This document shows, piece after piece, positions 2,740-61,100 of a stretch of 64,000 nucleotides of DNA. The DNA is from Apus apus (Eukaryota; Chordata; Aves; Apodiformes; Apodidae). The translations under genes were made by a program, and so were the position numbers. Position 1 is the stretch's first letter; every line of letters starts with the position of its first letter. The stretch lies in the NCBI RefSeq assembly GCF_020740795.1, contig NC_067291.1, positions 18,757,780 through 18,821,779 of the forward strand. Reading direction: 5' to 3'. The notes under the pieces are model-generated. The model did not search any database. It was given only the letters and a program-made list of their open reading frames with translations, and was not told the origin of the DNA.

Positions 2740-2872
2740 GGCTGGGGGGGGGGGGGGCGGAGCTGGGGGGAGCTCCTCCCCGCCGCCAGGGGGCGCTGGG
2801 GCGCGGCCGGTCCTCCCCGCCGCCAGGGGGCGCTGGGGCGCGGGCGGCAGGGGGCGCTGAGGCAGCGCCAAG
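2740..2872 (+). promoter_or_regulatory. PDCD7 CpG-island promoter with three tandem CTCF-like motifs
   Basis: The sequence changes sharply from AT-rich to very GC-rich here. A 14-base G run (2744-2757) is followed by a tandem repeat of about 37 bases. CCGCCAGGGGGCGCTG occurs near 2783 and 2819, and a third variant, GCGGCAGGGGGCGCTG, near 2843. All three are in one orientation and close to the CTCF core consensus. The last is followed at once by CAAGATGGCG, a YY1-like element that contains the PDCD7 start codon. The promoter role is inferred from position and composition. Confidence 0.7.
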
Positions 2873-5800: not shown

Positions 5801-6515
5801 CGGGTGATCTCAAGATCTCAGGAGCAGCAAATGAATTTGCAAATTTGGGGCTTCTAAGACATTTTAGAATCAAAGGTCTTTCCAGTTTATGGAATGATTC
5901 CTATGTTTGTGTTTTGACAGATGAATTTCCTCTAGCCCACCTCCTGCAGCCCTTCAGAGAGTATTACTTGCAAGCTGAGCATTCTGTAGCAGCTCTAATC
6001 CAGATCAGGTAAAAAACAAAGTATTTTATTATTAAAGATGACAGGTATTGCTTGTTGTTGTAAAATTGTGATGTCTTTTGGTTCCTTAACTTCCGAATAT
6101 GTTTATGCCACAAGTTGTCCTGTTTCTTTTCAGCCAAGGATTAAGCTTCTTGCTTGATAGAGTTGTACCCAAGAGGTGGCTGTGTGAGGCTGAGGGCACT
6201 TCCATGCATAACCATCCCATTTAATAGAACAGTACATAGAGTTTTCACGTTTGTGTTTTGAAAAACAAGCTTCAGAATACAACTTATAGTGGTTTATGTG
6301 TTGATCAGTGTGGAAAAATACCTTAGTGGGTGTCTAATAAATCTGATTACCAAATGAATTCCAACTCTCCTCTCAAACAATGCTCTCTCTGTTAAAGGCA
6401 CGAATGGGATCAGTTCTTGGTGCCAGCTGACCACCCTGAAGGAAGCTGCATCCCTCCAGGATGGGTTCTTCCGAGTCTCCCCACAAATGACACTTGGGCT
6501 ACAGCTGTCAGATAA
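2873..6515 (+). CDS. PDCD7: PDCD7, U11/U12 snRNP 59 kDa protein (5 exons)
   Basis: The spliced coding exons are 2873-3586, 4581-4719, 5074-5310, 5921-6008 and 6398-6515. All have GT/AG borders and consistent phases (0,1,1,2), giving 431 residues (human 485). The N-terminus opens MAQPPPFPGRFPPPP and is extremely proline/glycine-rich over about 110 residues. A long Arg/Glu/Lys coiled-coil region follows (KCIQEVEEKNR, ERELKAAADSVLSEVRKKQA, EGEQEEERKREVEKKQRKE). The conserved C-terminus includes DEFPLAHLLQPFREYYLQAE and PPGWVLPSLPTNDTWATAV. PDCD7 is the 59K subunit of the U11/U12 di-snRNP, which recognises minor (U12-type) introns in the nucleus; it was first named for an apoptosis link. The start is the first ATG after the CpG-island promoter, in a CAAGATGG context. 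The C-terminal exons match human PDCD7 closely, so identity is secure; only the very GC-rich first exon is uncertain in detail. Confidence 0.95.
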
Positions 6516-6521
6516 TTTAGT

Positions 6522-6527
6522 AATAAA
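6522..6527 (+). terminator. Candidate PDCD7 polyadenylation signal
   Basis: AATAAA lies only 7 bases after the PDCD7 stop. Another AATAAA follows at about 6764, so the true 3' end may be further downstream. Which one is used cannot be told from sequence. Confidence 0.35.
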
Positions 6528-6529
6528 CT

Positions 6530-9500
6530 TTTTTAACATTAGAGGAATGTTTCTTTATAGTAACATGTAAATATGAGAGGATCTGACAAGGAAGTCATCC
6601 TCTGTTTCAGTAGCCAGGTACTGGAATGTCTTGAAGGAAAGTGCAAGAAATGTTTTTGCCATCCAACTCTGGGGGAAAATATCTGAGCAAGCCCAGAGCT
6701 GCCAAGCCTCTCATGGTATGGAATTACAGTCCCACTGCAAAGTTCTGTTAACAAATCTGTCTTAATAAAGCAGCATTGCTGACGAGGGTATTCGTGCCAG
6801 TATTAACATCCTGTTCTTAAGTGGCTTTTATCTTTCAAAGCCTAAATCCAGATGTTGAAATGTCCAGAAAGAAAGAAGTTTAAAAAAAGGGAGATCATTA
6901 GTAGACGTGTTTTTCTTCTTAAATGAAGCATGTGAAGCATCCCTGTCAAAATAGTTCCTGTATTTTAGTGTGTAGAAACAAACCTATTACAAGTTTAAAC
7001 ATATTCTGAAGTACAAACAAAATGGGGCTTTTCAAGCTGGATTAAAGCAGCTGCTGACATTTTACTTCTGTGGACTAATACTGGTACCAAAACATGGAAA
7101 AAAATCCCAGTTGTGGTGAAATAAGTCAGACAGCTGTGTGAATATATTGAGATTTGATGAATAAGCCTGCTGGAAAAAAAAACAAATCTGACATCTAACT
7201 GACTGTGATTTGTTTTTGCCTATATAGCTATTTTTGTACAGGGACAGATCATATATATAGTACTTGATGAAAAAGCACAGCTCTGTTTTGTAAGTTGTTT
7301 TTTGTTACAGAATAAATAGAGGAAAATGGATTTATTTATTTTTTTGTTTGAAGTGTTTTTAACTTCAAGGGAGAGATTTGGTTTAGTACTTGGCATCAAA
7401 CATGACTCCAAAACACAGGTTACAGTGAACTCCTTGGGAGGTAAAGATTCAGATTTGTGTGTCTGTACATCCTCCTGTTCCTGCTGCTGCTTCAGTACTC
7501 CAAGACCTGTGTCTGGGTTGGACCCTGGGGAGTCTTGCAACTTCAAATAACCCAGCAGCAACGTCAGACCCAGCGCCCTCAGCTCAGTGACCAGAGGATG
7601 CTCTACCTACGTAGCTGGGCTCCTGATCCCATCAGCATCTCTGAGGAGACAGGCTCACTGCCTAAGCTGTGATCATCTTCAAACTGTCAAAGTCAGCTGC
7701 TTGTCTTGACGCTGAAAGAGTTTAAAAGAGCTGAGCAGCAGATAAGCAGGCAGTGGAAAAGCAGCCCTGGTCTGTGAGAGGAGCTCCGTGGGTCTGTCTG
7801 AAGGTAAGGAGAACTTCATGTTGTCAAAAAGAACAGGACTTGAAAATGCCAGTGGGTGATGCACAGTTAGGTGTACTTCACTTTCCTGCTTTCTGTGGTT
7901 TGTTCTATGTATTTGCTCTTCTCTAATGACATCTGCATTAAAATATTACATTTTTAGTGAGGAAGTTGTTGAAGCCACAGATGGAAGAGGAATGTTTAAA
8001 GTCTTAAATGGTGATAGGGTATTAATTCTTAAAAAAAACCCCCGTGTATTCAGATTTAAGGTTCAAATATATTTGAGTATAGTGTTTCCTACTGTCTCCT
8101 ATGGTATCTCCTATTAGTTTTAAGTTTTTAAAAATAATTTAGGCCTGAAGAAAAGAGAGGCTGGTAATGAGTTTCCAAGAGTTACTTGCATCCTATTCCT
8201 TTCCAGCTCCCAGTGCCATTCAGGTGTCTTATGCTTGTAAGACACATCCTCTTCCTGATAGGAATTTGTTTGATTGCCAGCCTGTGTCTTTGATGTCAAA
8301 GCAGACAGGGATGGTGGGAAGCAGATGAAGTCAGGACCCTTGTAGGAGCTGCTTTCTGGTGTGAGATGGTGTTTACCACTGCCCCTCTTTTATCCTTGTC
8401 TAGTGGTGTTTTTGTTGTTGTTCCTCACCCCAATGTACTTTTTTTCCAAGTAGTGGATTTAGGTATTAACACCTGTGGGAACCTCTCTCAGAGCACAGTA
8501 TTTGTGCAGTGAAGTACAGCAAGATATGGTACCATAATCTCTCCTTATTTTATTCATCCTGGCTTCAGCTGCATTCACAGCCCATCCTCATCGCTTAAAG
8601 TCATGTTTAAAACCAAGTAAAGCCGTCCTAGGCAATGGATGACAGGATGCTCCTTTCCTTTGCACCCAATTGCCACCAGCAGTGATCAGTACTGACTGGC
8701 TCTTGGGAAGAGCCAGTTGACAGGCGGGGGCTGCCTGGCCAGGCAGAGGAGCTGGAGGTTGCTGGGGGAAGGTGGCTTTGCCTGCAGATACTTTCACGCA
8801 TTGTCTTTGTCAGTGCTGACGTAAGTGGGAACTTAGGCTGAGCCCTCTTAGGCTGGGGAGCAGGTGGCCTGGCTCCGTGTGGGCTCCCGACACGTTGCCT
8901 GTGTCTTGTGTTGGCAGCAGGACACGTGTGGCAGCAGCAAAGCTGGTTACAGCTCTGCTTGCCCTGCCGCCCTGGGTATTAAAAGGCTCCTGGCTTAAGC
9001 AGGAGAGCAACAACTCTTGTAATTCTGGTAAGACCAAGTTGCACTGAGCAATTTTGTGTGTTGCTCTTTGTGGTCTGGAAGCAGGTTGTTAGTCCTGTGC
9101 TGACGTAAAACTACCTTGAATGCCATTTCCTATTATAGACCCTTGATTTTGCCTTAAACAGGCAGCTTTTTCTTCCTTGCATACATTAATCTGTGTATTT
9201 TCTTTTAGTGGATTGCTTATCCTCATTGTCACAGAAGCTTTTTTTTTAAAAGGCAATAAATAGTAGAAGCACTTAGGGATGTCACACCAAGTAGTTACTG
9301 TTTGTCTTGAGAGTGACTGCTGAAGACTTTGAGGTGGACAGGCACCCCAAGTACCCAAACTCAGTGGAAGACTGATCATAAACTCTTGCCAGTTGACAAT
9401 GTATAAAGGCAATTATTTTGCACACTGGGAAGTTGTGGACTTGAAGTTTCATGCAGCAAATAGTGGCTTTTTATTAAATTGAGACATTTATACAGAGCTG

Positions 9501-25991: not shown

Positions 25992-28900
25992 ATGTCCTCG
26001 ATGTTTGGCAAACCCCGAGCTGGCAGCGAGCGGCCCCCCCAGAGTCCCCTCCCCGAGTGCAACCTGGCCATCCTGGGGTGTCGAGGGGCCGGCAAGTCAG
26101 GTGAGATGGACACCCCACTGCCACGGGGATGGCCCCACACTGGGGGGGTAGGGAGTTCTGGGGTGCTGGTGCCTGGGGGGGGACACCCACCTCACCCTCC
26201 TCTTTCCCCTCCTGCAGCCCTGACCGTGAAGTTTCTAACCAAGAGGTTCATCAGCGAATATGATCCCAACTTGGGTAAGATGCTTTCCCCACGGGTGTTT
26301 TCCACCCCCCCACCCCCCCCCCCCCCCCGTTGTCCTCCATCAGCTCCCACGGAGCATCCTTCCCATCTCCTGCATTTCCCACGAATATTTAAGGGGAACA
26401 AGAAACAACAAACAAACCACCACTCCAAATTACATGAAAAAACAACGGAAGGGCTGGATTTGACCCAAACCCGCCTGTAAAAACAGAGGTGAAAGCAGCG
26501 CTCTCCCCGTGGGCACGTCCCGTGGGGGAACCTCAGCTCCTCATCGCCCCCAAACACCCAAAAGCTGAATTATTGGGGGTCCTTGGGGAGCACCTTGTGC
26601 CTTTTGCTTGCTCCTGGGGGTGTGGGGCAGGAGAAGGGCTGGGGGAGCAAGCGGAGGCTGCAGGGCAGGCGGTCCTGGGGGGCTGTGCTGTGCAGCCAGC
26701 TGCTCTGGGCATTATTTTTTTTCCAGTCATTTGAGTAATTAATAACTATTTTCCTAGGCTTGACTCCAGGGCACGGGGAAGAACCATAAATGATTTATCA
26801 GGGACATTAGGGAGAGATGGACCTTGTCCAGAAACCAACTCCGGCCACTAATAACTCAGCGACTTAGGAAAGAAGGATAAATCCTTTCCTGCTCGGATCA
26901 TTTTTGGGAATGTGGTTTCATCTTCCCACATCAAAACCTTTCTGTAATACATCCGTTAGGACCCAGCTGGGAGAAGGCATCTTTCTCGTGGGGGAACTCT
27001 CCCTGCCTACCCTCCTTCCAAAAGAAAGGGGTGCTCCTTTTCCCTGATTTATTGGGAAACAGCCCTGGTGTCAAGCCCGCAGCTCACTTTATCTTGCCAA
27101 GTCGAGGCTTTTAGATAAGGGCTGAGCCTTGGGTGCAGTGATGGCCACTCATGGTTCCCTCCCTCCTTCTCCCATGGGAGCCCACGCTTGCAGGTGCAGG
27201 GAGAAATGACTGCTCCCGGCTGGGCTTGCCCAGTGGCATCACCGCCACCCCCTCCAGAAATGGTGTCTCAGGAAGGAGTGAGGTGGGAGGTGTCAGTGGA
27301 GGATGTTCCTCAACAGGGGATGAGCTTTTTCCGCAGTGCTCCATGTTTTGGAGATGATGTGACACCCCAGCCCACCCTCACAACCACCCTTCTCCTTGCA
27401 GAGGACACCTACACCTCAGAGGAGCTGGTGGACCACCAGCCCGTGCTGCTGAAGGTGATGGACACCGCTGACCAGGTGAGTCCCCAGGCCACTGCTGGTG
27501 CCAACCGTCCAGCATTGCATGGCTGGACCACAGTTGGACCACGGCTGGACCCACAGCTGGACCCACAGCTCAGCTGCTCCTCTTGCCCCTAGGATGGCCC
27601 CGGGAACTGCGAGCGGTACCTGCGCTGGGCCAGCGCCTTCCTCGTGGTCTACAGCATCGAGGACAGGAAGAGCTTCGAGGGCTGCCAGCGCTACCTGGAG
27701 GTGGTGGCCCTGCACGCCCGGGGCTGCCAGCACCCCTGCCCTCTGCTCCTGCTGGGCAACAAGCTGGACATGGAGCAGTACAGGTACTGGATATGGGGCC
27801 AGGCTGTCCTTTCCTGATGGGAGAGAGCTCACTGATCACCCCCCTTCCCTCTGGCTGGGATGCAAAAAACAAATCCAGTTTTTTTGGGGCGGTATTTCCA
27901 CCCCCATTGGTACTTGCCACGTCCTCCTACATCTCCGAGGTTCCTGCTCTCCTGCCTGGGGGATGATGTGTTTATTTTCACTGGGATGTTTTGGTAAAGT
28001 AGCGTCACTGTCCCCAGGCAGGGCTTGAGCCTGCTCCAGCTTCTCACTCCCCTCCGGATGTGCCCTTTCCCTGGAGTCCTTTCTCACCCTGTCCCCAGCG
28101 AGTCCCATGCTGCCAGGACTGGATGTCCCCCGTGTGTTTTTCTGGCCTTTCTGGGGCTGTGCTGAGTGTTTGTCCCACAGGTACCTTGAGTCACATGTGG
28201 TGCTGAACCCACCAGTGCCCCCAGCACAGAGGCTTCCCCCTCTTTATGGCCAGGGCCTTCCCCATCTCCTTCCCACTTCCCAGTGCTTCACCATTACATG
28301 CAGTCCTTGCACCCTGAGCACACATCCCTGGCACGAGAGGCTGCATGATTCTTCAGGGACCTGCACAGCCCCTTGCTCTGTTTTTTTTGGGAAAGGCAAA
28401 ATTCTTTTGGACTTAAATCCCCTGCTGTGCCAGGATGGAGACGAAGGGGTGCTGCCTCGGTGCTCACCAAGAAGCTGCCGTGGGATGCAGGGTCTGGGAA
28501 GCTGGTGTGGGATGCAGGGCCCGTTGCTCTCTGCCTGCACCCCTCCTTCCCCATTTTGGGTGGTGCCAGTGTCCCAGGGGATGCGGCCCCCATCCCCTCC
28601 GCTCTCGCCAGGCAGGTGCCAGCAGCCGAAGGGATGTCCCTGGCGAGCAGGTTCGGGGGCCTCTTCTACGAGGTGTCGGCGTGCCAGGACTTCGCGGGGG
28701 TGCAGCACGTCTTCCACGAAGCGGTGCGGGAGGTGCGGCGCCGGGCGGAGGGCAGCCCGCCCCTCCGGCCGCTCTTCATCACCGAGGAGCGACCCTGCCC
28801 CCCGGTGGCCACAGCGGTGGCCCTGCCCACCCGCCACGGCCTGGCCAGCTGCACCTTCAACACCCTCTCCACTGTCAACTACAAGGAGATCCCTTCGGTG

Positions 28901-28996
28901 GCCCAGGCCAAGCTGGTCACCGTCAAGTCCTCGCGGGCTCAGAGCAAGAGGAAAGCTCCCACGCTCACCTTGCTGAAAGGCTTCAAGATATTTTAG
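25992..28996 (+). CDS. RASL12: RASL12 (RIS), atypical Ras-like small GTPase (5 coding exons)
   Basis: The coding exons are 25992-26100, 26218-26274, 27402-27475, 27593-27783 and 28612-28996, with phases 1,1,0,2, giving 271 residues (human 266). It starts MSSMFGKPRAGSE. The P-loop is GCRGAGKS (about 29-36), followed by LTVKFLTKRFISEYDPNL, the G3-like DTAD (where Ras has DTAG), NKLD (G4) and SAC (G5). The C-terminal tail SSRAQSKRKAPTLTLLKGFK ends in IF. There is no CAAX box, so prenylation is not expected, as in the human protein. DTAD in place of DTAGQ implies unusual GTP hydrolysis, a family trait rather than a defect of this copy. It is expressed in muscle and stroma in mammals, but its molecular role is poorly known. 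It converges on SLC51B, with the two stops about 1.3 kb apart. Confidence 0.95.
26313..26328. repeat. Poly-C tract
   Basis: A run of 16 C bases, preceded by shorter C runs, lies in RASL12 intron 2. It is a homopolymer whose exact length is prone to sequencing error. No feature is attached. Confidence 0.7.
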
Positions 28997-30273: not shown

Positions 30274-33200
30274 CTACAAAGCATCCTCAGATCTCTCTCT
30301 GTACAGAGATGTGACGGTCCCGTCCTTCCACTGGACTGTCACATCTCCTGATCGCTGATCCTGGGGCTCCTGCTTCTGGGGCTCTGGGGGGCTGTATCCC
30401 TGCATAGGCATCAGGGCTTGCTTGGCTTCCAGCTCAGCCTGCTGGGTGTTTTGCACTGCTTCTTTATACATCTGGATCTTCCTTTTCCTGCAAGGAAGGC
30501 ATAGAGAGGAAATGAGGAGTGAAGCAGCGAGCCCAGCCCGGGGAAGGTGACATCCCTTGTCACACCTGGGCCCTGGGGACACGCGAGGTGCTGCAGGACG
30601 AACCCCGCCAGCTGCTCTGTGCCATGGGAGTGCTCTCAAGTGTTGGAGGACACACAGCCACAGGGTTTCTGCTTGGAGAACATCCTCCAAAGCCAGGCAG
30701 TGACACCCAGCAAGTCATTGTCACCACGGGAGCATGGTGGACTTGTGACATTAGCTTTTTTTAATTGTAGAATCATTTAGGTTGGAAAAGACCTTTAAGG
30801 TCATCAAGTCCAACCTTTAACCCTACTCTACCATGTGAACCCCTAAAACTCATCCCCTCAAAGTGCTGCTCAGCTGCAGGGTTGCTGTGCAGCTGTATGG
30901 CCCAGGGGAACATCATGGGAACAAGATGGGGAAAGGCTGGGGTGGGCTCCCTACATGTCCCTGTGCTTATGGGAGAGCACCTCAGATGACACACATTTAA
31001 TGCCACCTCTCTCCCCACAGCCCCACTGGGCTGGGCAGAGCTGTTGCAGGTCCTTTACTGGTGAAAATCCTGGGCTTGGAGAAGTGAAGTGGCTTGTGAC
31101 ACATGAGGAGAGGAGGGAGTCAGGAAGGGCTTTACACTGAAGCTCAAGTCAAAGGGAGTTTGTCTTTGCTCTTCTCCCCATCACTGAGGGCTTGTCCTGC
31201 CCTTTGTCTCAGCATAGAATCATAGAATGGTTTGGATTGGAAAGGACTTTAAAGATCATCTAAGAAGATCAAAGGAGGTCAAGTAAGGTCAAAGAAAGTC
31301 AAGGAAGGTCAAGGAAGGTTAATGAGAGGAAGGTAATGGAAGGCAAGGAAAAGAGGGGCAAGGAAGGGGCAAGGAGCAGCAAGGAATGATGTCTCCAGCA
31401 GCCCCTAGGGATGCCCATCTCTCTGCTTGCTGAGCTATGTCTGCCTGAGGGGGTCTCAGCCCACCACCACACACAAAAAGGCTCCCAGATTTTCCTGACC
31501 CACCTGTTTCGCATAATGTTAAGGGCCAGGAGAAAAAGACCCAAAATCATGGCCACAAAGGAAAGCGTGAGGACCGAGTAATTCCATGTTGATGCTGGGG
31601 GAAAGCAGAGAGGGACAGGGTTAGCATGTGTGGAGCAGTGTGACCCACAGGGTCTGGCCAAGCATTTCCTGAGGATACTCAGCCCCAGAGTGCCATGGCT
31701 TGGCTGCAGGATGAGGGCAGAGAGGTTGGTGTCCACCCCAGCACCCAGAGCAGAGCATCCAGGTCACATTTTTTAGTATAACCTCAAGCAATTCTCCCTC
31801 CCTGGGCAGGAGACCTACACAACTGCCTTCTGTCACCTCCAGCCCCTGCCTCAGGCTCTGTGTCCCTCATGCTGACCACATCTGCCACATGTGGCTCCTC
31901 AGCCTTGCCCCAGAGCTGTGAGTGGCCATGCCCAAGGGTGGCAGCAAGGCTGAGGGCTACAGAGTCTCACCAAGAGCAAAGCTCCAAGGGCCCCTCTGCT
32001 CTGCAGCCCTTCTGGCCACTGTCACACTGCAGCAGGGAGATTTTGCCCTGGCTCACGGGCTGGGCTGTGCAGCACAGATGGCAGCGGGTGCTCTGGCCTT
32101 GATTCTTTATAGCTTTGAAGTTGATCCTGGGGCCACTGACCCCCTGACATCAATCTGCTCCCTCCACCCTGCCAAAATCATGGCTCATCCCAGACCTTTG
32201 CACTGTGTAAACCTGGGAAGAGGCTGAACCCCTTTCTGGGTGGAGACACACGCTCAGCAAAGCCTCGTGCCTGTCTTCACCCATGGTCTGCTTCTTCTGG
32301 AGGTGAGGCTGAGAGTTTATACATCTGGGGTAAATCACCTCCTGCAGTAATTCCTTTGGGCAGGAGGGAGTTCCATTAGGCAGGTGGGTTAACAGCCAAG
32401 GAGTGTCTTATTTTCCATTTTGGCTGAGGAACATCAGTGACACTTACCATCTTCTCTGCGGAAGAACCAGAGCAGCTCCTCCAGCTTGTCCTGATCCATT
32501 CCCAGCATGAGGGTGGCATTCCCTGCTGTGTGCTCATACACGTGGGTGCTGGCAAGGGCTGCAGCGAAGTACCTGCCCTGCTCTGCTGTGGAGGAAAAGG
32601 GCAGAGAGATGCAGTGGCTGCTCACTGCAACACTCCAGGCTACAAATGGCCTTCCCCTTGGCTCCCAGGGCTGCCCGGGACATCTCTCCAAGCAGGCAGA
32701 ACACAGCCATGAGGGCACAGCTCTAACTCCTGCACTGAGGTTTCTGTAGAGCCCATTAGGGTGAGCACCCAGGGCTGGGAAGAGCTGAGGCCGCTGCCGG
32801 GGGCGGCACTCACCTTTCTCCTCGCACACGCTCCTGCCTGCAGCATCTTGCCACTGGGCCTTGAGGCCTTGCACGTTAGTGAGAGCTACTCCCTTCCTGT
32901 TTGCCACCAGGTAGCCCTGGCTGCTGCCCAGAGGAGAGAGCAGGGAATTCCAGCAGTCCCAGCCCGTGTAGCCTGCGCTGCCGCAGGGACTCGTCTGCAC
33001 CGCGCTGGCTCCCGCCGAGAGGCAGCTCTGCGTGCCGTGATTCACCAGAGAATCGCCCTGCCAAGACCAGTCCTGGAAATCTGACTCTGGATCACAGTCC
33101 TCCAGCAGTAAATTCCCATTCATCGGGCTGGCTTGTAAACACAGCTTGACTCGAGTGTTTTTCATCAGAAAAGCTTCAGTTTCTGCAAAGAAACCAGCGT

Positions 33201-33996
33201 ATGAGTGTGGCCACCCCCTAAGCACAGGACGTCTCAGCACACATGGTGTATATGGCAGATGGGAATGGCACCTTATCCTGAACTGGGACATCAGCACAGG
33301 GCAAATGATATTCAAGAGACTCAGACCCTTCAGTAGCCTCATTGCTGGCTTTTGCTTTCCCTCTGGGGACAGTCACCCTGATGTCCTGCTCCAGCTGCAT
33401 GAACTAGGAACTGCCTCTGATGTCTTTGCTTCTAGGGAACCAAAGAGAAGGGTTTGGGGCTCAGATCTTGGCTGTCTAACCCTGAAGTGTCAGCTAAAAC
33501 ATCTCTCTGCACACTAGAGAAGTTAAAAGTCCCAGCAGACATTGGTACTGGGTTTAAAACAACATCTCCATGAGTCAGGGGTCTTCCCAGGTGCCAGAGA
33601 GATTGCAGGAGAGCTGTGAGCACAAGCTTAGCGTGCAGCTTTCCCTGTGGCTGAGCCAGGCTGCTGCTGTATGTTGAGGAATGTGGGCCCATGGAGAGGA
33701 AGAAACCCTGTTCCCAGAAAATGAAGGTCTTTAAAGCATGTCTTTGCCATAATACTGTCTGCATGTCTTTGCTCTCAGCCACTGAGGTGTTCATAAGGTC
33801 ATACAACAAACTCTAGCACATGTGCGTCCAGCTCCTGTGAACCCCTTGTTGTAGCCCCTGCTGAGCCAGGTGTGGGGCAGAGCCCACCGAGAGGCCCAGC
33901 CTCAGCAGGGGTGACCTACTTCACCCCCACCAGTATCCTCTAAGCCAAGATTCTACCTTGCAGCAGGAAAAATGGAATTATCCAGAAGAACTTCAT
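30274..33996 (-). CDS. SLC51B: SLC51B (OST-beta) with an N-terminal ricin-B-like ectodomain (5 exons)
   Basis: The exons, in transcript order, are 33957-33996, 32814-33182, 32448-32585, 31504-31594 and 30274-30487. All borders are GT/AG and the phases (1,1,1,2) fit, giving 283 residues. Residues 1-13 (MKFFWIIPFFLLQ) look like a signal peptide. Residues 14-136 form a six-cysteine ricin-B-like domain (KNTRVKLCLQA, EDCDPESDFQDWSW, GWDCWNSLL, RSVCEEK) resembling the N-terminal CysR domain of mannose receptors. Residues 167-283 match OST-beta: DKLEELLWFFRRED (human ELLEEMLWFFRVED), then NYS, one membrane helix (about 190-208), KRK and a cytosolic tail. OST-beta pairs with OST-alpha (SLC51A) as the basolateral bile-acid and steroid transporter. 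Human OST-beta has 128 residues and lacks the lectin part. Internal ATGs (Met163 or Met166) would give 118-121 residues, so a short form is also possible. The OST-beta core is secure; the fusion is inferred from splice sites and phases. Confidence 0.85.
30768..30850 (-). mobile_element. CR1 LINE 3' tail
   Basis: The plus strand reads AGAATCATTTAGGTTGGAAA then AGACCTTTAAGGTCATCAAG and TCCAACC, the reverse complement of a CR1 3' terminus. It lies in the last SLC51B intron and is very short, with only the tail kept. Confidence 0.85.
31213..31262 (-). mobile_element. CR1 LINE 3' tail
   Basis: The plus strand reads CATAGAATCATAGAATGGTT then TGGATTGGAAAGGACTTTAA and AGATCATCT, the reverse complement of a CR1 terminus. 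It is cut off abruptly at the start of the decamer repeat that follows, in the last SLC51B intron. Confidence 0.85.
31265..31390. repeat. Polypurine decamer repeat with AGGTCA-like hexamers at DR4 spacing
   Basis: A purine-rich tract (plus strand) begins with a 10-bp repeat, roughly AAGGAAGGTC. It places hexamers AGATCA, AGGTCA, AGGTCA, AAGTCA, AGGTCA and AGGTTA at 31266, 31276, 31286, 31296, 31306 and 31316. It then decays into AAGGAAGGGGC-like units. AGGTCA repeats with 4-base spacing match the DR4 element bound by LXR, TR or CAR with RXR. It lies in the last SLC51B intron beside a CR1 tail. Binding is not shown; it may be a chance microsatellite. Confidence 0.65.
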
Positions 33997-34009
33997 CTTT
34001 GTAAGTGCA

Positions 34010-37000
34010 GCTGGGATGGATCACACCTTCACTGGTGTCTCCTCAGTGTGCAGACACCTGGGAAAGGGAGAGAGATGGGAGGTGAGGGGTGACCTTGTGG
34101 TGTCCTCTGTCAGCTCCTGCTGTGTGGTACCACTGGGTTTGTCAGTGAGAGCCCTGGAAGTTGTAGGAATTACTCCTCAGGGGGACTGGAGACAGCAGGA
34201 CAGTGTGTTTCTCCTCTGGTGTCTATAGCCAATGAAAGGAGACAAAACCGCAAGTGATGCAGATTCCCCTGCTCCTGTGTTCAGAGAAGGACCCAGTGCA
34301 CCCCTGCAGCTGTGGCAGCAGTTTGTGAAGGTGGGTGTGAGCTGCCAGGACAGAGTACAGACATCCTGGGAGCTACTGAGGTGACAGCAGAGAGGGTCTG
34401 GCCTGCGGTGGAACCCCCTCCCCAGGTGACTTTATGCAGATGTGATCTCAGCTGCTGAGAGCCAACCCCTCCCCAGCTAACTTTGCTGCTCCCCTGACAC
34501 GATCCGCAGGGAATACATTCTTTGTGGACACTGATACCTGCTGCCAATCCATGGATGGCAGATTAAAGGCACAGAGATGAGGAAGTGGAGGGCTTAGCTT
34601 CAAGAGGAGGAAAAGCTGGCTTGCCATTGAGATAAAGGTATCTCCCATCCCTCAGGGAAGCAGAAAGCTCCCCTCTGACCTTTAGTCCCTCATTTGTCAG
34701 TGGCATCAATCCAGCATTTATGGCTTCTCCATCTCAGTTCTTCAGCCTCCTCTGGAGGGACCTGATCTGAGCAGAGGCTTTCCCCTCTCTGTGCTGTGAG
34801 CTGGAGATGGTCAGGCTGGCTCTCCCCAGCCCACTGCTCAGTCACTGCTCACCTGCCTCATCCGATCCATCACCCACTTGCAGGTGAGTGACACCACAAC
34901 ACACGTGTCCCTCAGACAGGCTGGCCCTACAGGCCAGCAATCATTACATGAAGATTTAAGACTTTTACAACTGTCTGATGCTCTTAACTTTTACTCACTT
35001 TGTCCTGGCACTGCCTGAAGCTGTCGTGTTCCACCATGCCAGGCGTGTCAGCAACACTGCTGCTGACTCCTCAGGGAAGCATTTGTCCTATCGGTTAGAG
35101 ACCTAATGATTGCTACTATTTTCCCCCCCTTCTCAATGTCTTCACAATTCAAAGTTCACATTTTATAGCCAACCAGGCATGCAGGCTTGCTCCCTGCTGC
35201 CAGAAAACCACCCGTTAGCAATTCTTTAAGGACAGGACTCGGAAATAAGTGGTCCACTTTGAGTCTGTATTGCAGAAAATATGGTTAAAGCTGCTCCCTG
35301 CAGTTAGGTATGCCAATTAGCTTACTGTGCAGGTAAGCTTTAGCTTATTCATGGGGATCACTCCTCAAAAAGGAGGAAATAAAGTCTTGGTGCCAATGAA
35401 ATCAAGTTCCAAGACTGCTACACCCTAGTAAGAAGTGCCACTTAAATGTGTTGAATCTTGCTGTGCGAGGTTTCTGTCTAATGATTTGCTTGAACAGGAA
35501 CAGCTGAAATTCATGTTGCTGATTTTCTCCTAAGGTGTTTCATAACTTGTGGGCCACCTCCTGGTGCCCGTGCTCAAGCTGCCATGCACAGCAGGGTGCT
35601 GGGGAGCTGCTACAGCTACTTCACTGCTTTATAAATCAGTGGTGGCCAAATCTCCCCCAGACGCGGGAGGCTGGAACTTCTCAGGTCCAACACAGCAGCA
35701 GAACAGATATTAACCTTGTGCTAACAAATAATTCAGGTAAAAGTTTTTCAGGGAAAACCCTGTTATTTTAAAGATCTTTTACATCTACATCAAACTACTT
35801 TGGAAATTTCAGGTATCCACAAAACAGTGTTCTCAAGCCAGGGTATCTACCCCAGCAGAAAGCCTGAGCAGGATCCAGAACACTGCCTGCGCCACCCGTT
35901 TCTCCAGCAAGGAAAGAGTGATTCCCACAATTGGATTGGACACGCTTTGGAGAGTTTGGATCTTCCAGCCTGGAAGAGAGAGATTTAAAGTCCTCTCCTT
36001 CAGCTTTCCCCACCCAGCTGCTCTGCCCTGCTGCCCACATTCTGGCTCTGCTCCACCAAACAAGCCCAGAGAGCATGGGTGATGCCTTCCCTGCTGTCCC
36101 CTGCCCACACGTCTCAGCATTAACTCTGGATGCTATTGGATGGGGATGAGCCCTTAGATCCAGGCTTTAGACAACTCTAAGCTGTGGACTTTGGTCTCCC
36201 AGCCCTCTGAAGACACCCAAGACCCTCCTGAGGTTGCTTCCCAGCTTGGGTGCTCCCAGGGGAGCTCAAAAGAGAGAAAGCTTGTGCATTTTAAGCTTCT
36301 ACAGGAGGAGGCAGAAAGCACAAAGAGGCCAGCACCTCCCCAAGAAACATTCTACCTGAGTTATTTTGAGTTTACATTCACATCTGAACAATTTTGTCAT
36401 TTTTGTCTTTTTGCAAATAGGATTTTCACATCAAAGGCTGCAAAGTTTATATGCTGTGTGTAGTTCAGGAACAAAATGTCACTCACCAGTGCTGTCCCAG
36501 ATCCTCTTGTTCAAAATCAAGATCTGTGGAGTTTGGTGGCATCTTATGAAATCTTATGAAAAAGTACAGAAAAATGGCAAGTGGCTGCTTTCTGCTCTGC
36601 ATATGGATGCCAGCACTTAAATGGTAAAATCCTTCCCCATGATGGAACCCTTTGGAGATATGAGACCCACCACCTGCACAAGGTGGAGCTGGGGGATCAG
36701 TGCTCTAGAGGTTGGCCATAAACTGGTGGGGGGGCCTGTCCTGGGCAGGAAGACACACGTCCCCAGCTCCACATGGACTCTTTCCAGCCAGGAAACAGCC
36801 CGTGGAGCTGTGAAACCACTGTGTGCTTTCTATGTTGGTTTTTATCAGGTCTAATACTCCAGGTTGCTTACCAAGCCAGATGTTGCCCTCACTCTGCAAA
36901 GAATTCATCTTTGGATACTCACCACATTGATACTAGTAAAGATGGAGGAAAAAAGTCTTCTGGAAAGGCTACCAAAGATGATAATGTCCCTCTGGACACT

Positions 37001-52454: not shown

Positions 52455-55400
52455 CTAGTATGGGAGGGGACGTTGACCTCTGATGGGGGTCCTGCCTTGG
52501 GTGGGCTGGCGGCTCACTGGCCTTTGGTACACAGGGCTCTGCCCTGGCAGAACCAGCATGGATTGCTGACCCGAGTTCCTCTGAGACTGGAAGATGCTTT
52601 GCTCCGCTGCGCTCCTCTCTGAACAGGTGAAAGTCAACCCAACGCCGACGTTGCTCTTCATGGTTCTGGAGGTGCCATCAGACGTGCCATCGAAACATCT
52701 GCCCAGGGCAATTTCCTTGGCGATCCTGGGGTCTTGGTCGGTGACGGTGTAGATGCCGTAGTTGTGTCCCAGGGGGTCGAGAGGAGCCAGCATCGTGTAC
52801 TCGCTGGAGTCGTTGTTGGTAGCCATGGGGAGGTGGTTCACCAGGTACTCATGGAGCATGCTGTTGACGCTCTCTCGGCGGCAGCTGCCTTGGGGCACCA
52901 CTTTGACGAGCGTGCGGTCCACGCGGTCTTGGTCGAAGAGCATCCCACTGCACTTGAACTCCAGGCAGGCTGCTGACACGTCCGGCTGCTGGAGGTCACG
53001 GGTGCTGCGGACATCCCGGATGCCGTAGAGCTTGCCAATGGTACGTGGGTGCGTCCCACCCATGTTACGAGACCTCACGTTCACCTCTTGGGGTCCGTTT
53101 ATTTTTACTTTAATGTAGCAGGCCCTAAATTCCATGGGCTTCGGCCACCACGCCAGGTAGTCATCGGTCCAGCTCATGAGGTCGTCTTCACTGAAGGGGA
53201 CAGTGTTGTAGTCATACCTGTCTCCTTCTATCCGGTAAAACCTGAAGTGAGCAGCGCTGTGTGGAGCTTCCTCACATTCTCTCAGGTTTTCATAGGCATA
53301 AATAGGGCCATTGTTCTCATCTGGGGAATTAGGGCTTGGTTTGGCCATGTTAATGCTGAACGCTGTTTTCTTTGTGCTGGAGTCCTCATGGTCTGTTCTC
53401 CTGTAGTTGAGCTTGTTGAGGTATGGCTGTGGGACTCCGATAGCGTTAGGGTTGAGTTTGGGAGCAGAGGAGACAGCTTCAAGCTCTTCGCCCCCCAAGC
53501 TGGCCAAGATATAAGCTGCATAGGCCTTGGGGTTTTGGTCATCGCAGAAGGCGGGCACGCAGGCGCCGTTGGGACCAGTGACCACGCTGTCAAAACGGCC
53601 CCATGCTCTGGGGTTGGAGGAGAACCCTGGCTCTGGCTCTGTGTTGATAACAGAAATCACAACCCCTTGGATCTGCTCACTTTGCAGAAACCTCTCACTT
53701 CTGTAAGCCCGGATTTTGATGTAGCACCGCCTGCTCTCAGGGACATCCAGGTTAAAAAGCCGCCTTTCTTTGATCTCCATGTTCCCTACCAAAAAAGTTC
53801 TCTCCTCCCTTTTTCGCCGTCTGCTTTTCTCAAGGTTGAAGTCCCCTTCTTCCTCCCATAATCCTGTTTCTGGGTTCAGTGACCAAAGCTTCATCTCTTG
53901 CAGGTGCTCTGGCATCTTGACCTGAGCAGCATCCAAGTGAACTTTCACTGCCTCTGCATTAAGAGACTCGGATCCCTGTTCGTCAGTGAAGTCCACAGAA
54001 AACATGCCGTACGTACGGAGCGGAAACACGTCTCCTTCCTCATCTATAAAGTTCAGGTCGCTTGGTGTCACAGGGGCTGTGGAGATGTTTCTTGGGTCCA
54101 GAAACGTCACACTGGCTTTCACTTTCCCTCTGTAGGCCTCTCCGTTTTTCCTATAAAACGCATCAGGAGGGATTTCTAATTCAGCAATGGGATCATCTTC
54201 CGTTTCTCCCAAGGAAATCACGTTGGTTTCAGCGGATTCCAGCGTAACAGGGGCTTGCTTTCTCAGTAGCTTGATCTCATGGAACACAGCACCTCCATTT
54301 TCCTTGAAGGGCAGAACTTTTGTTGTGTTCACAAACTTCTGCAGCCGATCAACAAAAGTTAGAACCAGCCTCTCCGTGTCTGCTGGGACTTGGATGGAGA
54401 AGGTTCCCTTGTAGCCGGTCATACTCACTCTCTTGTTGCCCATGTAGATGTGGCCAAACCTCAGTGGCTCACCATTATCTGCTGCTGTGGCTCTGCCTCG
54501 AACCGTTATTTTGGTTTCGGTGCATTTTTTGCAGCCACATTCTATGACAACTTTAGTGGGGAGCACATACCCATTGCAGGAGATGTCTCTGGTTTCCATC
54601 CTGGACACCCCACAGCAGTAGGAGACGTTGTCCTTACACCGGAGTCCCTTATCCAGCTTCCCAGCACAGGTCTTTGCTGGGCACTTGCCCACGTCGTAGT
54701 AGAAGGAGTTGGTTGCTTTTTGGAAGCAGTCGTGGGGAAGTCGGATGAGGTGGCTCTGGGGCTGGGAGTTGCAGGCTGCCTCCTGTCTTCCTGTTGAACA
54801 GGATTTCTTAATGAGCAGCATGAAATAATTGTACAGTCACTGCTATGTGGTCTGAAACACTCAGTGCTAAACTTCTAATAGTAGCAAGGTTTTTGCAGCC
54901 ATAAACCAGGTGTTTGCAGGATTTGGGTTAGCTGAATTCATCTGGCCTCTGTTTGGAGCAGCAGGTGCTCAGCTTTGACTTTTGGTACCTGATAAAGAGC
55001 AGTGCTGCTTGCTGGAGTGTCCCAACTCCTGCTTACCCACCACTGCCATCCAGTCCACCCACAGTTAGATGTTCTGCAGCTGCCCAGCTTTTTGGCTAGG
55101 GACAGAGCAAAACGTGTCCCAAGGTTTAAAAAAATCACCCTAAACAAACAAATATTCATGTCTGGCAGCAAGGGCAGTGAGAAATCTGATGAAACCAGCA
55201 GCCTGAGCTTGGCAGGTCACCTGCAATCCAGAGCTCCAATTTGTAGAGAGCATCTGGTTCATAACCAGCTCACGCAAGCTTATCTGCAAGCAGATGCATG
55301 AAATAAATGCCAAATATTTGTCTTGCGACTTTTCTTTGCCACGTGTATCACCATTTCTGGTTTCTGGCCCCTGCTGCCTTCCCAGCTCCTTGGGGAGCAT

Positions 55401-58102
55401 CACACACACTTTCTCCTACCTATGACAGCAAGCTTGGCAGAGCGGGACTTTGCCGATCCCCCGGCGCTGCTGGCCTTGCAGAAGTACTCTCCAGCCTGGT
55501 CTCTGTTCAGGTTCTTCAGAATCAGGTTGTTTTTGTATTTGTATAAGGAGGGATCCAGCAGGGAGCCGTTGTGGTACCTGCCAGGAACAGGCAGGGGGTT
55601 AAGGGGACAGAGGGTGACTGCCTGGCTGGAGCAGAGTGATGGCCTAATCCTGCATCCTGCCATGTGGATCTTGCCAGGCCTCTTGACTCAGTTTCCCCCT
55701 TGGTAGTCTGGCAAGTTGGCATCACCTAAAAGTTACTCCCCTTCCCCTGGCAGTACTGAGATGTGGCTGCCAGGCAGCTGGCAGTCAGGCAGAGCTGCCT
55801 CTTGTGCCTGCTGAGGATTTTTATGCTCTTATTTTTATGTTTTTCTAGTAAATCCCTCTGCAGATGACATCATCACACCAGTGAGAAACACCAGCTCTGT
55901 GGATCTTGAGGAAACTATCATTTCCAGCAATCAGTTCTTGGCGTATTTAGCTGTTTTATAGCTAAAAATACACCTTTATGGAGATGATAAGGAGATAAAA
56001 ATGGAATATATGGGACAGATAAGAAGACTTCTGCCTGATCCAACTGGAGTTCCTTACCAGAGGTAGCGGTCAGGGGCTGGGCTCCCAAGGGCATCGCAGC
56101 AGAGTGCCACGCTCTGTCCCACTCTCCTGGCTTTGTCCTCAGGGCTCCTGAGAATGTAGGGTTTGCCTGCAGGAGGAGGAAAAGGCCATTTTGTTACTCT
56201 TTTCTTCCTAAAATTACGGCTTATTTCACAGAATGGTGGGGGTTGCAAGGGAGCTCTGGAGATCACCTAGTCCAACCACCCTGCTGGAGCAGATCACACA
56301 GGAACACATCCAGGTGGGTTTTGAATGTCTCCAGGGATGGAGACTGCCACAACCTCCCGGGGCAGCCTGTTCCAGTGCTCTGTTACACTCAGAGTAAAGA
56401 AATACTATCTTTATCTAGGTTAAAAGGTTCCAAATTACTGTGTAAAGCCTCCTTCTTCCTTCCCCTGTTTTGGGCTACCTGATCGTTGCAGCTGCACTTG
56501 GATCCCCAGGTTTCTTCTGTTGCTCTCAGGTATGGTGACAGTCGAGGTTGCATACTTGGCTTTTTTTATTTTAAGGGTGTTTTTGCCATCAGGACAAACC
56601 CCTGGGATTCTAAACATGCCCCTGTTATCAGCCATTGTCAACAGTTTGAGTGTCTTTGCTTGCAGGTAGACCCGAGCATCAGCAGCAGGTGACCCGTCCT
56701 CCAGAGAGACCTTCCCGTGCAGGGTCGCATCCTCGCACATGCAGGCGTCGCAGTCAGCGTTGACACGGCCCATGGGGCAGGAGATGTTGCAGGCTGGAGG
56801 AGAGGCAGGCAGGTCAGAAAGCAGCCCCAAGTCCCCCTAACACTCACGGCACAGTCTGGCGTCTGCTCTCAATTTAGATGCAATAAGGCAGATCTTGCAT
56901 CAGGAATATATTGTCTCCAAAACATATTTTTACTGATTCTCAACAGCTGCTTATTAGAAGCACAGGGACGATGTCATTTTGAACCTGACAATTAGTAGAA
57001 AGCAGCCACGTGGATATAATTACAGCTAGGAACTGTTATTTACCTTCCCCAAAGGGCTGAATTTCGGGGAAATTTGAATCCAGATCAGCATGTGAGCTCT
57101 TAGCTCAGTCCTGGCAAAATTACAAATCCAAACGCCTTAAACTTTCTAGGTTTCTATTACCAACTCATGCCCAAAAGTCATGACTTTTGTCTTATCTTAA
57201 AAGCTCTCTCCCCTTATTCAAAAGTATCCTGGCATGGGCAGGACCTAGGTTATTTGCCAGAGGATCATTATGTGATGGGTTTAATGAATGGTCTCTCAAA
57301 CAGTGATTCTGAAACATTTTCATTACCTACAGTGATTAATCCTAAATAATAATCTGTCTCTTTCCAAGGCAAGGGTTTAGGTCATTTCTGTTACAGTCAC
57401 CCAGCATAGCTGGAAATAACTGGAAGAAATCAGGGAAAACCTAAAACAACTTTCCTGGAGAAAACATAGATTATTTTCAGAATAATTTGTTTGAAAGGAG
57501 ATTATAAGAATAATATAATGAATTCTGAGCCCCTTAGCAGGGGCTGTGGCTATTTGATATTCCCAACTCATCTCCTCCTGGAGACTGCATGGAGGCAGCT
57601 GCCAGCAATTGCCAACTCCACCTAAAGAGCTGCTGTTGTAACAAGATTAATGAGATTTTTCCAATATCCCCAGGATCTTTATGGGTCCCTGATGATTCCC
57701 CATATTTGAATCCCACCCTCATCTTGCTGTTTAGCTGTAAATCCCCCATGCTCTGCTCCCTGAGCAGTCTCCAGCCCTGCTCAGGGAGGCACCGGTATCA
57801 TGAAATTCTGGCAAGGGACAGGAAGATGGTAAAATGACAGTGAAAGGATCACAGTGCCTATGCAGTGGGGAGGTCAGGACATCATCCCCTGCCCGTAAGT
57901 GAGGTTATAGGAGCACCTGAGCAGACATGTCCAATGCAGAGCCGCCCTTCCTCAGTTGCTTCATGACAGTGCACGCCCCAGAGGTGCTCAGCTAGGCAGG
58001 ATCTGGTACGCTTCTGCACACCGGTTTGGCCACACTTTCCTGAGCACTCGCTCCATTTCGACCATGGAGACAAAAACCTTTTTGAATCTTGCACCAGTGG
58101 AC
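52455..58102 (-). CDS. CILP: CILP, cartilage intermediate layer protein 1 (partial, 5 coding exons found)
   Basis: The exons, in transcript order, are 57917-58102, 56479-56793, 56058-56166, 55420-55577 and 52455-54790. All are GT/AG with matching phases (1,1,2,1), giving about 1034 residues. The first is a thrombospondin type-1 domain (SPWSKWSECSGKCGQTGVQK). Next comes CPMGRVNADCDACMC with a carboxypeptidase-regulatory-like fold. Two exons form an Ig-like C2 domain (GQSVALCCDALGSPAPD, DQAGEYFCKASSAGG). The large last exon matches human CILP throughout (YLIRLPHDCFQ-like start, RFGHIYMGNKRVSMTGYKGT, NKLNYRRTDHED, WTDDYLAWWPKPMEFRACYI). SRRRKREERTF keeps the furin-type site that splits CILP into two chains. 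CILP is a secreted matrix glycoprotein of cartilage and fibrotic tissue that binds TGF-beta1. The roughly 150 N-terminal residues (signal peptide and WxxW domain) were not found between 58.1 and 63.7 kb. Confidence 0.95.
56226..56445 (-). mobile_element. CR1 LINE 3' fragment
   Basis: The plus strand reads TTTCACAGAATGGTGGGGGT then TGCAAGGGAGCTCTGGAGAT, CACCTAGTCCAACCACCCTG and CTCCCGGGGCAGCCTGTTCC. This is the reverse complement of a CR1 3' end. It sits in a CILP intron, ending within about 35 bases of the donor of exon 56479-56793, and is in the same orientation as CILP. Confidence 0.9.
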
Positions 58103-61100
58103 CTTGAATAACATCAGGGGTGTGTTACTGAGACGCACAATAGCATGTACAGCTGCCCCAAAACGGGCAGTTGTTTTCTTAGCAGCTTCTATACAGCTCA
58201 GACTATGAATTTGGGTATTACACACCACACGGATTAAACACACTCAAAGCATGTCCAGGGAGCTGGGAAATAAAGCATGAGGAGGTGCCTGAATACTTCT
58301 GACTTAATTCCCCCCAGGCTACCAGGTTCAGGATGATTAAGATAAACTTGAGGGCAGCAAAGTGCAGGCAGCTCATGCTTACTGTTGAATAACTTTGGCT
58401 TACAGGAAATCAAACACACGTTGTCATTTAAATGCTGTCTGAGGGGCAATGCTCTCCTGCATTTCAAATGTGGTTAAAAAAAAGAAAAAGGGGGGGGGGG
58501 TAAAATTGTTGGCATGAGCATGTTGAATGTCTTTAACCATACTCCAGCATATGTTCTCTATTGGGGAAGTGTGTGTCTGATTGTGTGCACTGGTTTTACT
58601 GGGTGCAAACACAGTCCTAAGATGCTGCTGAGCATGTTAGGGGCCAGCTGATTTGTAAAACACCAAGAGGGTTTATTGAGAGTTTAATATGTGGTTAGAT
58701 TGTTAAAGGGATTTTTTAACCGGGCTCCTAGATGGTATTAATTTAAGCTGCTTTGAATGGATGAGACCCACTCCAAGTCTGTGGTTTGGGTTTCTTTTTA
58801 AATGACAATGTTCTAATAATGTTTACGAGGGTACGTGTGACTAAAGCTTCTAAAAATGACATCTCTTGGAGACGTGAGCCATGTCATCTCCCACACCTAC
58901 TCTTCCACCCAATTTGTAATAAACCAGGTCGGGTTATTTCCTAGAAAGGCAGACGGGCACATGGCTGGACTATTTGAGTAGTGATAGTTGAAAACAACCC
59001 CTTGGCTTACAAAAGCAGGTGGCTGGAAAAGACTGTTTAAATGCAAGCGGACACGGAAGCGTCATGTCTGGTTTGGAGTGGGTGCTTGGTTTAGATGGGC
59101 AAGTTTTTAATCTGTTGGCACCTCAGCATCTCCCATTCAGCATCCTGAGTGGCACATCCATGGACCTTATTTAGTAATCTGGGGGATGGGGATGCAGAAG
59201 CAGATGGGCTTGGGGACATGGTCCCTTCCCAGGCAGCACGCGGATAAATGCCTGTGTTTGCCCTAAGCAAAAATGAAATGTGCACCACACTGAAGTGGGG
59301 TCTCGGAAGGAGCCTAAGGCTGCTTTAATCTGCAGGGCTGGAAGTGCTAAGAATGGAGTAGGGAAGTTCTGTTTAGGGAAAGGACATTATATGGCTCTGG
59401 GTAGCAACCTTGACAGCAGGAAAAGCAGAAAGCAGAGGAGAGGGGAGCAGCTGAGGGGCTGGAGGGCTGGCAGGGACATGGGGAGGGACAGGGCTGCCCC
59501 CGGCACCGGCCGCAGGAACGTACTGCGTCTGACGTAGGCGAAGGTTGGGTCTCGCCGGCGAGAGCTGCTCCTCGTACCTGCAGGCAGAGGATGGGCCTGG
59601 GGTGGTGTGGGCAGGGGTTCCCTGCTCCCCCAGTCTCCTCCCACAAACCTGGTTGCACCAAGCCTGGCTGCTCAAACTGACCAAGACTGTCACACCCTCT
59701 CCTGGAGGGAAAAGCTGAGGTTACAGCTCGCTGCTGCCAAGGGCAGATGCTTTAGTTTCCAGTTGCATTGGTCAAAACCTCAATATCTTGTGTCATTTTT
59801 CCCCAGAGAAGCAGGAGTGACCTCCTGCTCTGCAAGCCCCAGCCTCAGCGTCACTGCCTTGTGCCATCCACTTTGAGGGGAAATAAATTTTCCTGGTATT
59901 TTCCTAAAAATACCTCTCAGTGGATGGATGGGGCCTTTCTGAGCGTCTGTTTTCAGTGCTTTGATTCTCTCCAGCGGCTTGGAGAGCTGCTGGGAGTGGG
60001 ACAGGAGGCTGGGAAAGTCCCTTAATCCCTCAGCTATGGCGTCGGTGTGTCCAGCCCTTTCAGTGCCCACTGGAATTTAAATCCTGAGTATCGGGCAGTA
60101 AAGCTTGACGAGTCGGGGTATGTCCTGGGGATTAACGAGCAGAGCGGTCATTAATGTCCCCTGGGCTTTAATCCTAAAGCAGTGGTGTCTCAAACTGCCC
60201 TGGGCGTGGGGACAGGCTGGGTAGGGGAAGGGCAGGTCAGAGCATGTGCTCGCCCATCCCTGGGCTCTCCTGGCCCTCCCATCTTGTGCGTGCCTCCCGC
60301 GGGAGCCGGGGCTGTGGACACGCACTTGACCTTCACTTTTCCAGGAGGGGAGCCAACAGCCTGTGTCAGCAGTAGCCAAAACCCTACAGGAGGTCATGGA
60401 TGATTAACATTTATTCCATTGCCTAAATGTCCTCATCTACTTAAATAATATTGTTTGGTTATACATTGAAGATGAAAAAAATCATACATGTGCAAACACC
60501 CCTTGTCCTGGCGGGGGAAGGACCCCAGGCTGGGAAATAACTTACTCTCCAAGCTGAGCGTTATCAGTGGGCTGAAGGTTTTCTGTCCTATCTGGATCCT
60601 GCTGAGGGCTGGTCTCAGAAGCCTTTGACCTAAGGGTCAATAAATTAGAGATTAAATTAGATGAATAATAAATTAATTCAGTTCAAGGGATTAGGCATCA
60701 TTAGGCTCAGGGGTTTTTTTATATTTGCTTTTGGGATTTGGCTGGTTAGAGCTCCTGTGTGATACAGTGCAGGAGTTGCCAAGTGAAGGGAGTAATGGAG
60801 ATGTCCCACAGCATCACTGTGGGTCAGCTGTGATGCAGACTTGCCATTTCCCTTATCACCCTAGAAAAACTTTTTTTTTTGCACTTTCTGTGTTGGAGCA
60901 GCTCAGATCAAATAATCTTTTTATAGCTGGAGATACAAAAGACATCCTGCCCCTCCCTGCACAGGGGGAAACGAACCTGAGGTGGATAAAGTTGGTTGTC
61001 ACTATGAGACATGGACTGGTGGGTCGTGGACTGGTTTCTGTGCTTGCTGGCTACCCAGGTGCCCAAGGAGAGCTGGTTGTCGTGGCTGGTTCCTGAGGTT

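What the first reader, a model, noticed from the sequence alone, without database searches (positions are those of the whole stretch)
32814..33996. OST-beta gene with a signal peptide and mannose-receptor-like lectin domain spliced onto its N-terminus
Seen: a 40-base exon encoding MKFFWIIPFFLLQ, and a 369-base exon (phase 1 in, phase 1 out) encoding a six-cysteine domain with FQDWSW and GWDCWNSLL. These precede, on the same strand and in matching phase, the exons of OST-beta (LEELLWFFRRED, one membrane helix). Known: human OST-beta is about 128 residues, single-pass with its N-terminus outside, and has no such domain; the CysR domain normally sits at the N-terminus of mannose/PLA2 receptors, and phase 1-1 exons are the classic shuffling unit. 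Inference: exon shuffling made a transporter subunit with an extracellular glycan- or ligand-binding module. The topology fits, because a signal peptide would place both the lectin domain and the OST-beta N-terminus outside. I know of no description of such a protein.
Basis: partly seen in the sequence, partly recalled or inferred. Interest (0 to 1): 0.88.

Follow-up and report, generated by a model that had tools for sequence, protein, structure and literature searches.

The report
Bile-acid transporter subunit with lectin-like domain
In this (probably bird) genome the gene for the small beta subunit of the bile-acid exporter OST is preceded, in one matching reading frame, by a signal peptide and a mannose-receptor-type cysteine-rich domain that the human subunit lacks, so the animal may make a larger transporter subunit with an extra outward-facing module; no RNA evidence was available to prove it.

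Summary
On the minus strand five exons (33996-33957, 33182-32814, 32585-32448, 31594-31504, 30487-30274) join in phase into one 283-residue frame: hydrophobic leader, six-cysteine domain, OST-beta (PF15048 E 2.5e-22). The cysteine-rich exon is a CysR-type domain: a profile of eight CysR exons of this genome finds this ORF at E 6e-10, the next of 940 at 1.4. It lacks the sulfated-GalNAc tryptophan, so "lectin" names a domain type, not a shown activity. Fusion is favoured over a separate gene: the CysR frame has no stop before OST-beta exon 3, the 228-base intron holds no AATAAA/ATTAAA, phases match, and exon 2's donor is near-consensus. No FN2 pattern lies in the window. OST-alpha exons exist in the genome. 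Weak points: poor exon 1 donor and a mediocre exon 2 acceptor score, a possible shorter start in exon 3, sub-threshold Pfam scores for the domain, no transcripts, no other vertebrate genome to compare, unusable structure model. At 20-27% identity to the CysR relatives compared it is no recent close copy. Open: expression, ancestry, ligand.

The parts
33957..34057 (-). first coding exon: 61 b putative 5'UTR after an acceptor at 34057, then ATG at 33996 and leader MKFFWIIPFFLLQ, phase 1 out
   Evidence: acceptor score reached by 0.2% of AGs; the leader ATG is the only ATG of this exon; donor GTAGAA weak (1.06 bits)
32814..33182 (-). CysR-type (six-cysteine, ricin/mannose-receptor N-terminal type) domain exon, phase 1-1
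   Evidence: donor AAG|GTGAGT reached by 0.07% of GTs, acceptor by 7.5% of AGs
32586..32813 (-). intron 2, 228 b, in-frame open, no AATAAA/ATTAAA nor the nine other variants searched
32448..32585 (-). linker plus OST-beta extracellular segment (LEELLWFFRRED), NAT sequon, phase 1-1; possible alternative start codons at MLGM and MDQD
31504..31594 (-). OST-beta transmembrane exon
   Evidence: 19-residue hydropathy peak 2.52 at residue 189
30274..30487 (-). OST-beta cytoplasmic tail exon with TAG stop
   Evidence: the PF15048 match extends to residue 273 of 283

Best explanation
The SLC51B gene of this animal encodes, from its 5'-most coding exon, a 283-residue type I membrane protein: a cleaved signal peptide (inferred cut near A17), a CysR domain (three disulfides and beta-trefoil-like fold inferred from relatives), a linker with one N-glycosylation sequon, and then ordinary OST-beta (extracellular OST-alpha-contact segment, one membrane helix, cytoplasmic tail). 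It pairs with OST-alpha as usual; the CysR domain stands on the outer, basolateral side of the bile-acid/steroid exporter. Shown: the exons, phases, homology of both parts, and OST-alpha exons in the genome. Inferred: splicing, cleavage, pairing and place. Most likely work of the module: an outside protein-protein or ligand-docking or quality-control arm that helps assembly, retention or positioning of the transporter, not binding of 4-sulfated GalNAc by the mannose-receptor pocket.
For: In-phase 283-aa frame over five exons. OST-beta 79.7 bits, cut-off 27; human OST-beta 9ljg_B E 3.2e-12. CysR profile E 6e-10; eleven invariant columns in an alignment of seven, all six Cys among them. Each of the eight CysR exons found by PF24562 has a phase-1 acceptor and a phase-1 donor at the domain ends. 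Exon 2 donor reached by 0.07% of GTs and exon 3 acceptor by 0.2% of AGs; the 228-b intron has no in-frame stop and no AATAAA or ATTAAA. No FN2 pattern in six frames of the window. OST-alpha exons on C9, E 8e-68 to 9ljg_A. Human N-terminus extracellular and needed for OST-alpha pairing (PMC4924846, abstract and passages).
Against: No RNA or protein data. Weak exon 1 donor and mediocre exon 2 acceptor score (7.7% of GTs, 7.5% of AGs do as well). A short human-like start exists in exon 3: MDQDKLEELLWFF in the context GGAATGG, 118 aa, though two out-of-frame ATGs precede it in exon 3. The dileucine motif ELLEE of human OST-beta reads DKLEE here. The CysR domain is below both Pfam cut-offs, and PF24562 searched over the genome did not report this exon. 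The single-sequence AlphaFold model was poor (pLDDT 36.2), so there is no structural support. The resemblance of the upstream linker to the human N-terminus (EHTAG/EHSEG) is not significant: 562 of 5000 shuffles do as well.
Confidence: 0.7

Rival explanations
1. Two starts, one gene: the main SLC51B product is the short human-like subunit started in exon 3 (MLGM or MDQD), and the signal peptide-CysR form is a minor or tissue-specific isoform. (Not exclusive with the best explanation, so the odds do not sum to 1.)
For: An in-frame ATG in a good context in exon 3 gives 118 aa, near the human 128. Weak exon 1 donor.
Against: Two upstream out-of-frame ATGs in exon 3 with frames that run past the in-frame start. 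An FXR-type IR-1 scan marked neither promoter: 2 matches in the window at up to 2 mismatches (7581 and 37812), 3.74 expected by chance.
Confidence: 0.35
2. Separate neighbouring gene: exons 1-2 belong to a small secreted CysR protein, and SLC51B starts on its own.
For: Same-strand neighbours can be separate genes; a transcript that keeps intron 2 would read on through exon 3 to a stop at 32434. Exon 2 could also splice to an exon I did not recognise.
Against: The CysR frame has no stop before the OST-beta exon, no AATAAA or ATTAAA lies between them, and exon 2's donor is near-consensus.
Confidence: 0.12
3. Relic: exon 2 is a dead or unused leftover of a mannose-receptor-family gene.
For: Exon 1 donor is weak and exon 2 acceptor mediocre; the domain scores under both Pfam cut-offs.
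Against: All six Cys and the core Trp are kept at 20-27% identity to the relatives compared, the frame is open, exon 2's donor is strong, no FN2 pattern is nearby: this looks like long constraint, not a recent broken copy.
Confidence: 0.08

Closest known systems
Human OST-beta (SLC51B; PDB 9ljg chain B)
   Same: OST-beta segment with LEE(M/L)LWFFR.ED, one membrane helix, basic residues after it, cytoplasmic tail; 49.5 bits over 57 residues
   Different: Human is 128 aa and starts MEHSEG, with no room for a CysR domain; ELLEE there, DKLEE here
CysR domain of the mannose receptor (PDB 1dqg, 1fwu) and of its family (MRC2, PLA2R1, LY75; family names of the own-genome loci are my inference)
   Same: Six cysteines in order, core tryptophans, phase 1-1 exon; place behind a signal peptide recalled
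   Different: 20-27% identity to the CysR exons of this genome; Trp117 of the sulfated-GalNAc site is Lys; followed by OST-beta instead of FN2 and C-type lectin domains
Clonorchis sinensis OST (PMC5942847, passages)
   Same: A fused architecture in the OST family
   Different: There OST-alpha-like and OST-beta-like parts are in one chain; no CysR domain is mentioned in the passages seen

Membership tests
OST-beta (PF15048) | profile match above the curated cut-off | tested here: met
   79.7 bits, cut-off 27, residues 160-273
OST-beta (PF15048) | single membrane helix following WFFR.ED | tested here: met
   best 19-residue hydropathy windows all start at residues 188-193 (six best shown)
OST-beta (PF15048) | acidic dileucine ELLEE (conserved in the 8 species of PMC4924846; not part of the Pfam definition) | tested here: inconclusive
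   aligned segment is DKLEELL: one of the two Leu and both following Glu kept
OST-beta (PF15048) | pairing with OST-alpha for transport | not testable with these tools
   only OST-alpha exons in the genome shown
CysR domain (ricin/mannose-receptor N-terminal type) | six ordered cysteines and core Trp | tested here: met
CysR domain (ricin/mannose-receptor N-terminal type) | Pfam curated cut-off of PF00652 or PF24562 | tested here: not met
   20.7 of 29 and 15.0 of 27 bits in the full protein; 23.3 and 16.2 as the exon alone. The domain call rests on the genome's own profile, so it is 'CysR-like' by Pfam's standard
CysR domain (ricin/mannose-receptor N-terminal type) | beta-trefoil fold | tested here: inconclusive
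   model pLDDT 36.2, not usable
Mannose receptor family (MRC1/MRC2/PLA2R1/LY75) | FN2 and C-type lectin domains after CysR | tested here: not met
   exon 2 is followed in phase by OST-beta; no FN2 pattern, strict or loose, in six frames of the window (patterns recalled). The C-type lectin pattern was too loose to decide (11 matches, 2 on the minus strand)
Mannose receptor sulfated-GalNAc lectin | Trp117 stacking residue | tested here: not met
   chain position 117 of 1dqg (Trp) aligned to Lys; role of Trp117 from PMC4635314 passages

The most novel reading that the evidence does not exclude
OST-beta carrying an N-terminal CysR module is an old, conserved form in part of the vertebrates (for example birds and other reptiles), with a docking or ligand function at the basolateral face of the bile-acid exporter, and mammals have the stripped-down version with a new start codon.
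Probability: 0.35. Interest if true: 0.8.

Novelty: new variant of a known kind. Interest (0 to 1): 0.6.

Why it matters
[quoted passage not shown] A version with a folded outside domain would show how a transporter helper subunit gains an extracellular module, would give a handle on what the OST-beta N-terminus does, and would warn against carrying the mammalian gene model over to other vertebrates.

Tried and rejected
Rejected: that the CysR exon is part of a resident mannose receptor gene (no FN2 pattern; the eight CysR exons over the PF24562 cut-off lie on C26, C7, C3 and C1); that it is a recent close copy of one of those (22-27% identity to all eight and the longest branch of the tree, 1.60; it falls between the four C3 exons, split support 0.937, and the other four, 0.808; fast change of a younger copy is not excluded); chance similarity. 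Led nowhere: single-sequence AlphaFold (no fold search made on it); one genome contigs and two viral-contig scans (the one viral hit, L015, is 24 residues in a roughly 40-residue open stretch between stops; one search had read the wrong frame); FXR IR-1 scan; the EHTAG/EHSEG resemblance to the human start (not significant). The bacterial promoter scan has no bearing on a vertebrate gene. Literature: ten searches of the held PMC library, among them SLC51B+ricin (0 papers), SLC51B+mannose receptor (2, macrophage transcriptomes by title) and SLC51B+lectin+chicken (1, caecal transcriptome by title). No title or abstract start listed describes such a protein; one search listed 10 of 14,241 papers and one search listed 8 of 9, and most subscription papers and the vertebrate sequence databases were out of reach, so a database may already hold this gene model.

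Full report
What is there. The window is 64 kb of contig C11 of a 1.1 Gb, 110-contig genome. I take it for a bird from genome size and gene content; no tool named it. On the minus strand, exons 33996-33957, 33182-32814, 32585-32448, 31594-31504 and 30487-30274 join to an 852-base frame, 283 residues. The order is leader, six-cysteine domain, linker, OST-beta. Pfam finds OSTbeta at 79.7 bits over residues 160-273, and the PDB search human OST-beta of 9ljg at E 3.2e-12. Over the whole genome the OST-beta profile passes its cut-off at one place, exon 4 of this gene (1 of 8 places over the cut-off; exon 3 of this gene is another of the 8, under it; the other six, all under it, lie elsewhere). That search goes exon by exon and is weak.

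Is the cysteine-rich exon real? Pfam alone is short of its cut-offs (20.7 of 29 for Ricin_B_lectin, 15.0 of 27 for CysR_MRC2_N), and mannose-receptor CysR 1dqg comes at E 0.0012. PF24562 found eight CysR exons over its cut-off in the genome, this one not among its matches (10 matches, 8 over). I built a profile from those eight (L002-L009). It scores the window ORF at E 6.1e-10, the next of 940 ORFs at 1.4; the exon itself scores 37.6 bits against at most 11.8 in 2000 shuffles. In an alignment of seven (the window's and six of the eight) eleven columns are invariant, among them all six cysteines. Each of the eight has a phase-1 acceptor and a phase-1 donor at the domain's ends, as here (L008 has a second AG in another phase, L004, L006 and L008 a second GT in another phase, and I took the more usual-looking sites).

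Is it joined to OST-beta? First, exon 2's donor AAG|GTGAGT is reached by 0.07% of GTs on the strand, exon 3's acceptor by 0.2% of AGs, and the phases match. Second, exon 2's frame stays open through the 228-base intron and exon 3, to a stop at 32434, so a CysR protein that ends of its own in this stretch cannot be made without taking in OST-beta sequence. Third, no AATAAA or ATTAAA lies in that intron; from exon 1 to the OST-beta stop the minus strand has no AATAAA and two ATTAAA, both in the last intron (31001, 30765). No FN2 pattern occurs in any frame of the window. The weakest link is the 5' end: exon 1's donor scores 1.06 bits, reached by 7.7% of GTs, and exon 2's acceptor is reached by 7.5% of AGs on a crude pyrimidine count. 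In favour, exon 1 is the only signal-like phase-1 first exon in the 4.8 kb upstream (in all 64 kb, 2 on the minus strand, itself included, and 1 on the plus strand), and a strong acceptor lies 61 bases before its ATG. A short form from exon 3 (MDQD, 118 aa, good context) cannot be ruled out; two out-of-frame ATGs precede it.

How it would work. Human OST-beta has its N-terminus outside, where it contacts OST-alpha; the ELLEE motif there is needed for pairing and surface delivery (PMC4924846, abstract and passages). Here the same place reads DKLEELLWFF. OST-alpha exons are on C9, E 8e-68 to 9ljg_A, with a second OST-alpha-like set on C1 at 108.6 Mb, E 2e-26 (exons joined by eye; in the family search one C9 exon was over the PF03619 cut-off, and the C1 108.6 Mb exons were under it). 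So the likely protein is a type I OST-beta whose CysR domain stands on the basolateral outside, behind a linker with an NAT sequon (residue 159; a second, NYS at 187, lies at the membrane). The mannose-receptor Trp117, on which the sulfated sugar stacks (PMC4635314, passages), aligns with Lys, so I expect no such binding; Endo180, which has Ser there and also lacks the sulfate contacts, does not bind (same passages). A docking or assembly role is my inference.

Age and novelty. The domain is 22-27% identical to all eight relatives in one alignment and 20-25% to six of them in another, while the four C3 copies are 50-59% alike. In a quick tree it falls between the C3 four and the other four on the longest branch (1.60; split supports 0.937 and 0.808). 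It is thus no recent close copy, though fast change cannot be told from age here. Age would predict the exon in other birds or reptiles. I could not test that: no other vertebrate genome was at hand, and the scans of viral contigs (2) and genome contigs (1) gave no usable relative. None of ten literature searches listed a paper whose title or abstract start describes it (see Tried and rejected). I rate it a new variant of a known kind, fusion probability about 0.7.

Against my reading, in full: no transcript, weak exon 1 donor, mediocre exon 2 acceptor score, sub-threshold Pfam domain, poor structure model (pLDDT 36.2), altered dileucine, a feasible short start, and a non-significant linker resemblance to human (562 of 5000 shuffles).

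Noticed in passing
L009 (G000:C1:168780922-168781254, + strand); L013, L036: A CysR exon (40.9 bits, phase 1-1) outside the C26, C7 and C3 places; on the same strand a Ser/Thr-rich exon-like frame follows (L013 near 6500-6750) and about 20 kb on a fibronectin type III-like frame (by eye). Possibly another CysR exon joined to a different receptor.
   Followed up: partly
L034 (C9:16191000-16200900) and L035 (C1:108585000-108592000): Two OST-alpha-like exon sets in one genome: one close to human OST-alpha (E 8e-68), one more distant (E 2e-26).
   Followed up: partly
window 32434-33182, minus: The 228-base intron 2 is in frame and stop-free, so keeping it (and the exon 3 donor unspliced) would give a CysR protein ending just after exon 3, without a membrane helix.
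   Followed up: partly
C3:20911129-21095816 (L005-L008): Four CysR exons within 185 kb on C3, 50-59% identical to each other: perhaps a small cluster of MRC1-like genes.
   Followed up: no
window 2861-3748 (+), 27142-28976 (+), 52458-58124 (-): Frames that look by eye like PDCD7, RASL12 and CILP (names recalled, not searched) flank the gene, an order that differs from the human one as I recall it.
   Followed up: no
PMC8088581 (passage): SLC51B is listed as 8.7-fold up in the oviduct magnum of laying against non-laying hens, a tissue useful for choosing RNA-seq to test the junctions.
   Followed up: no
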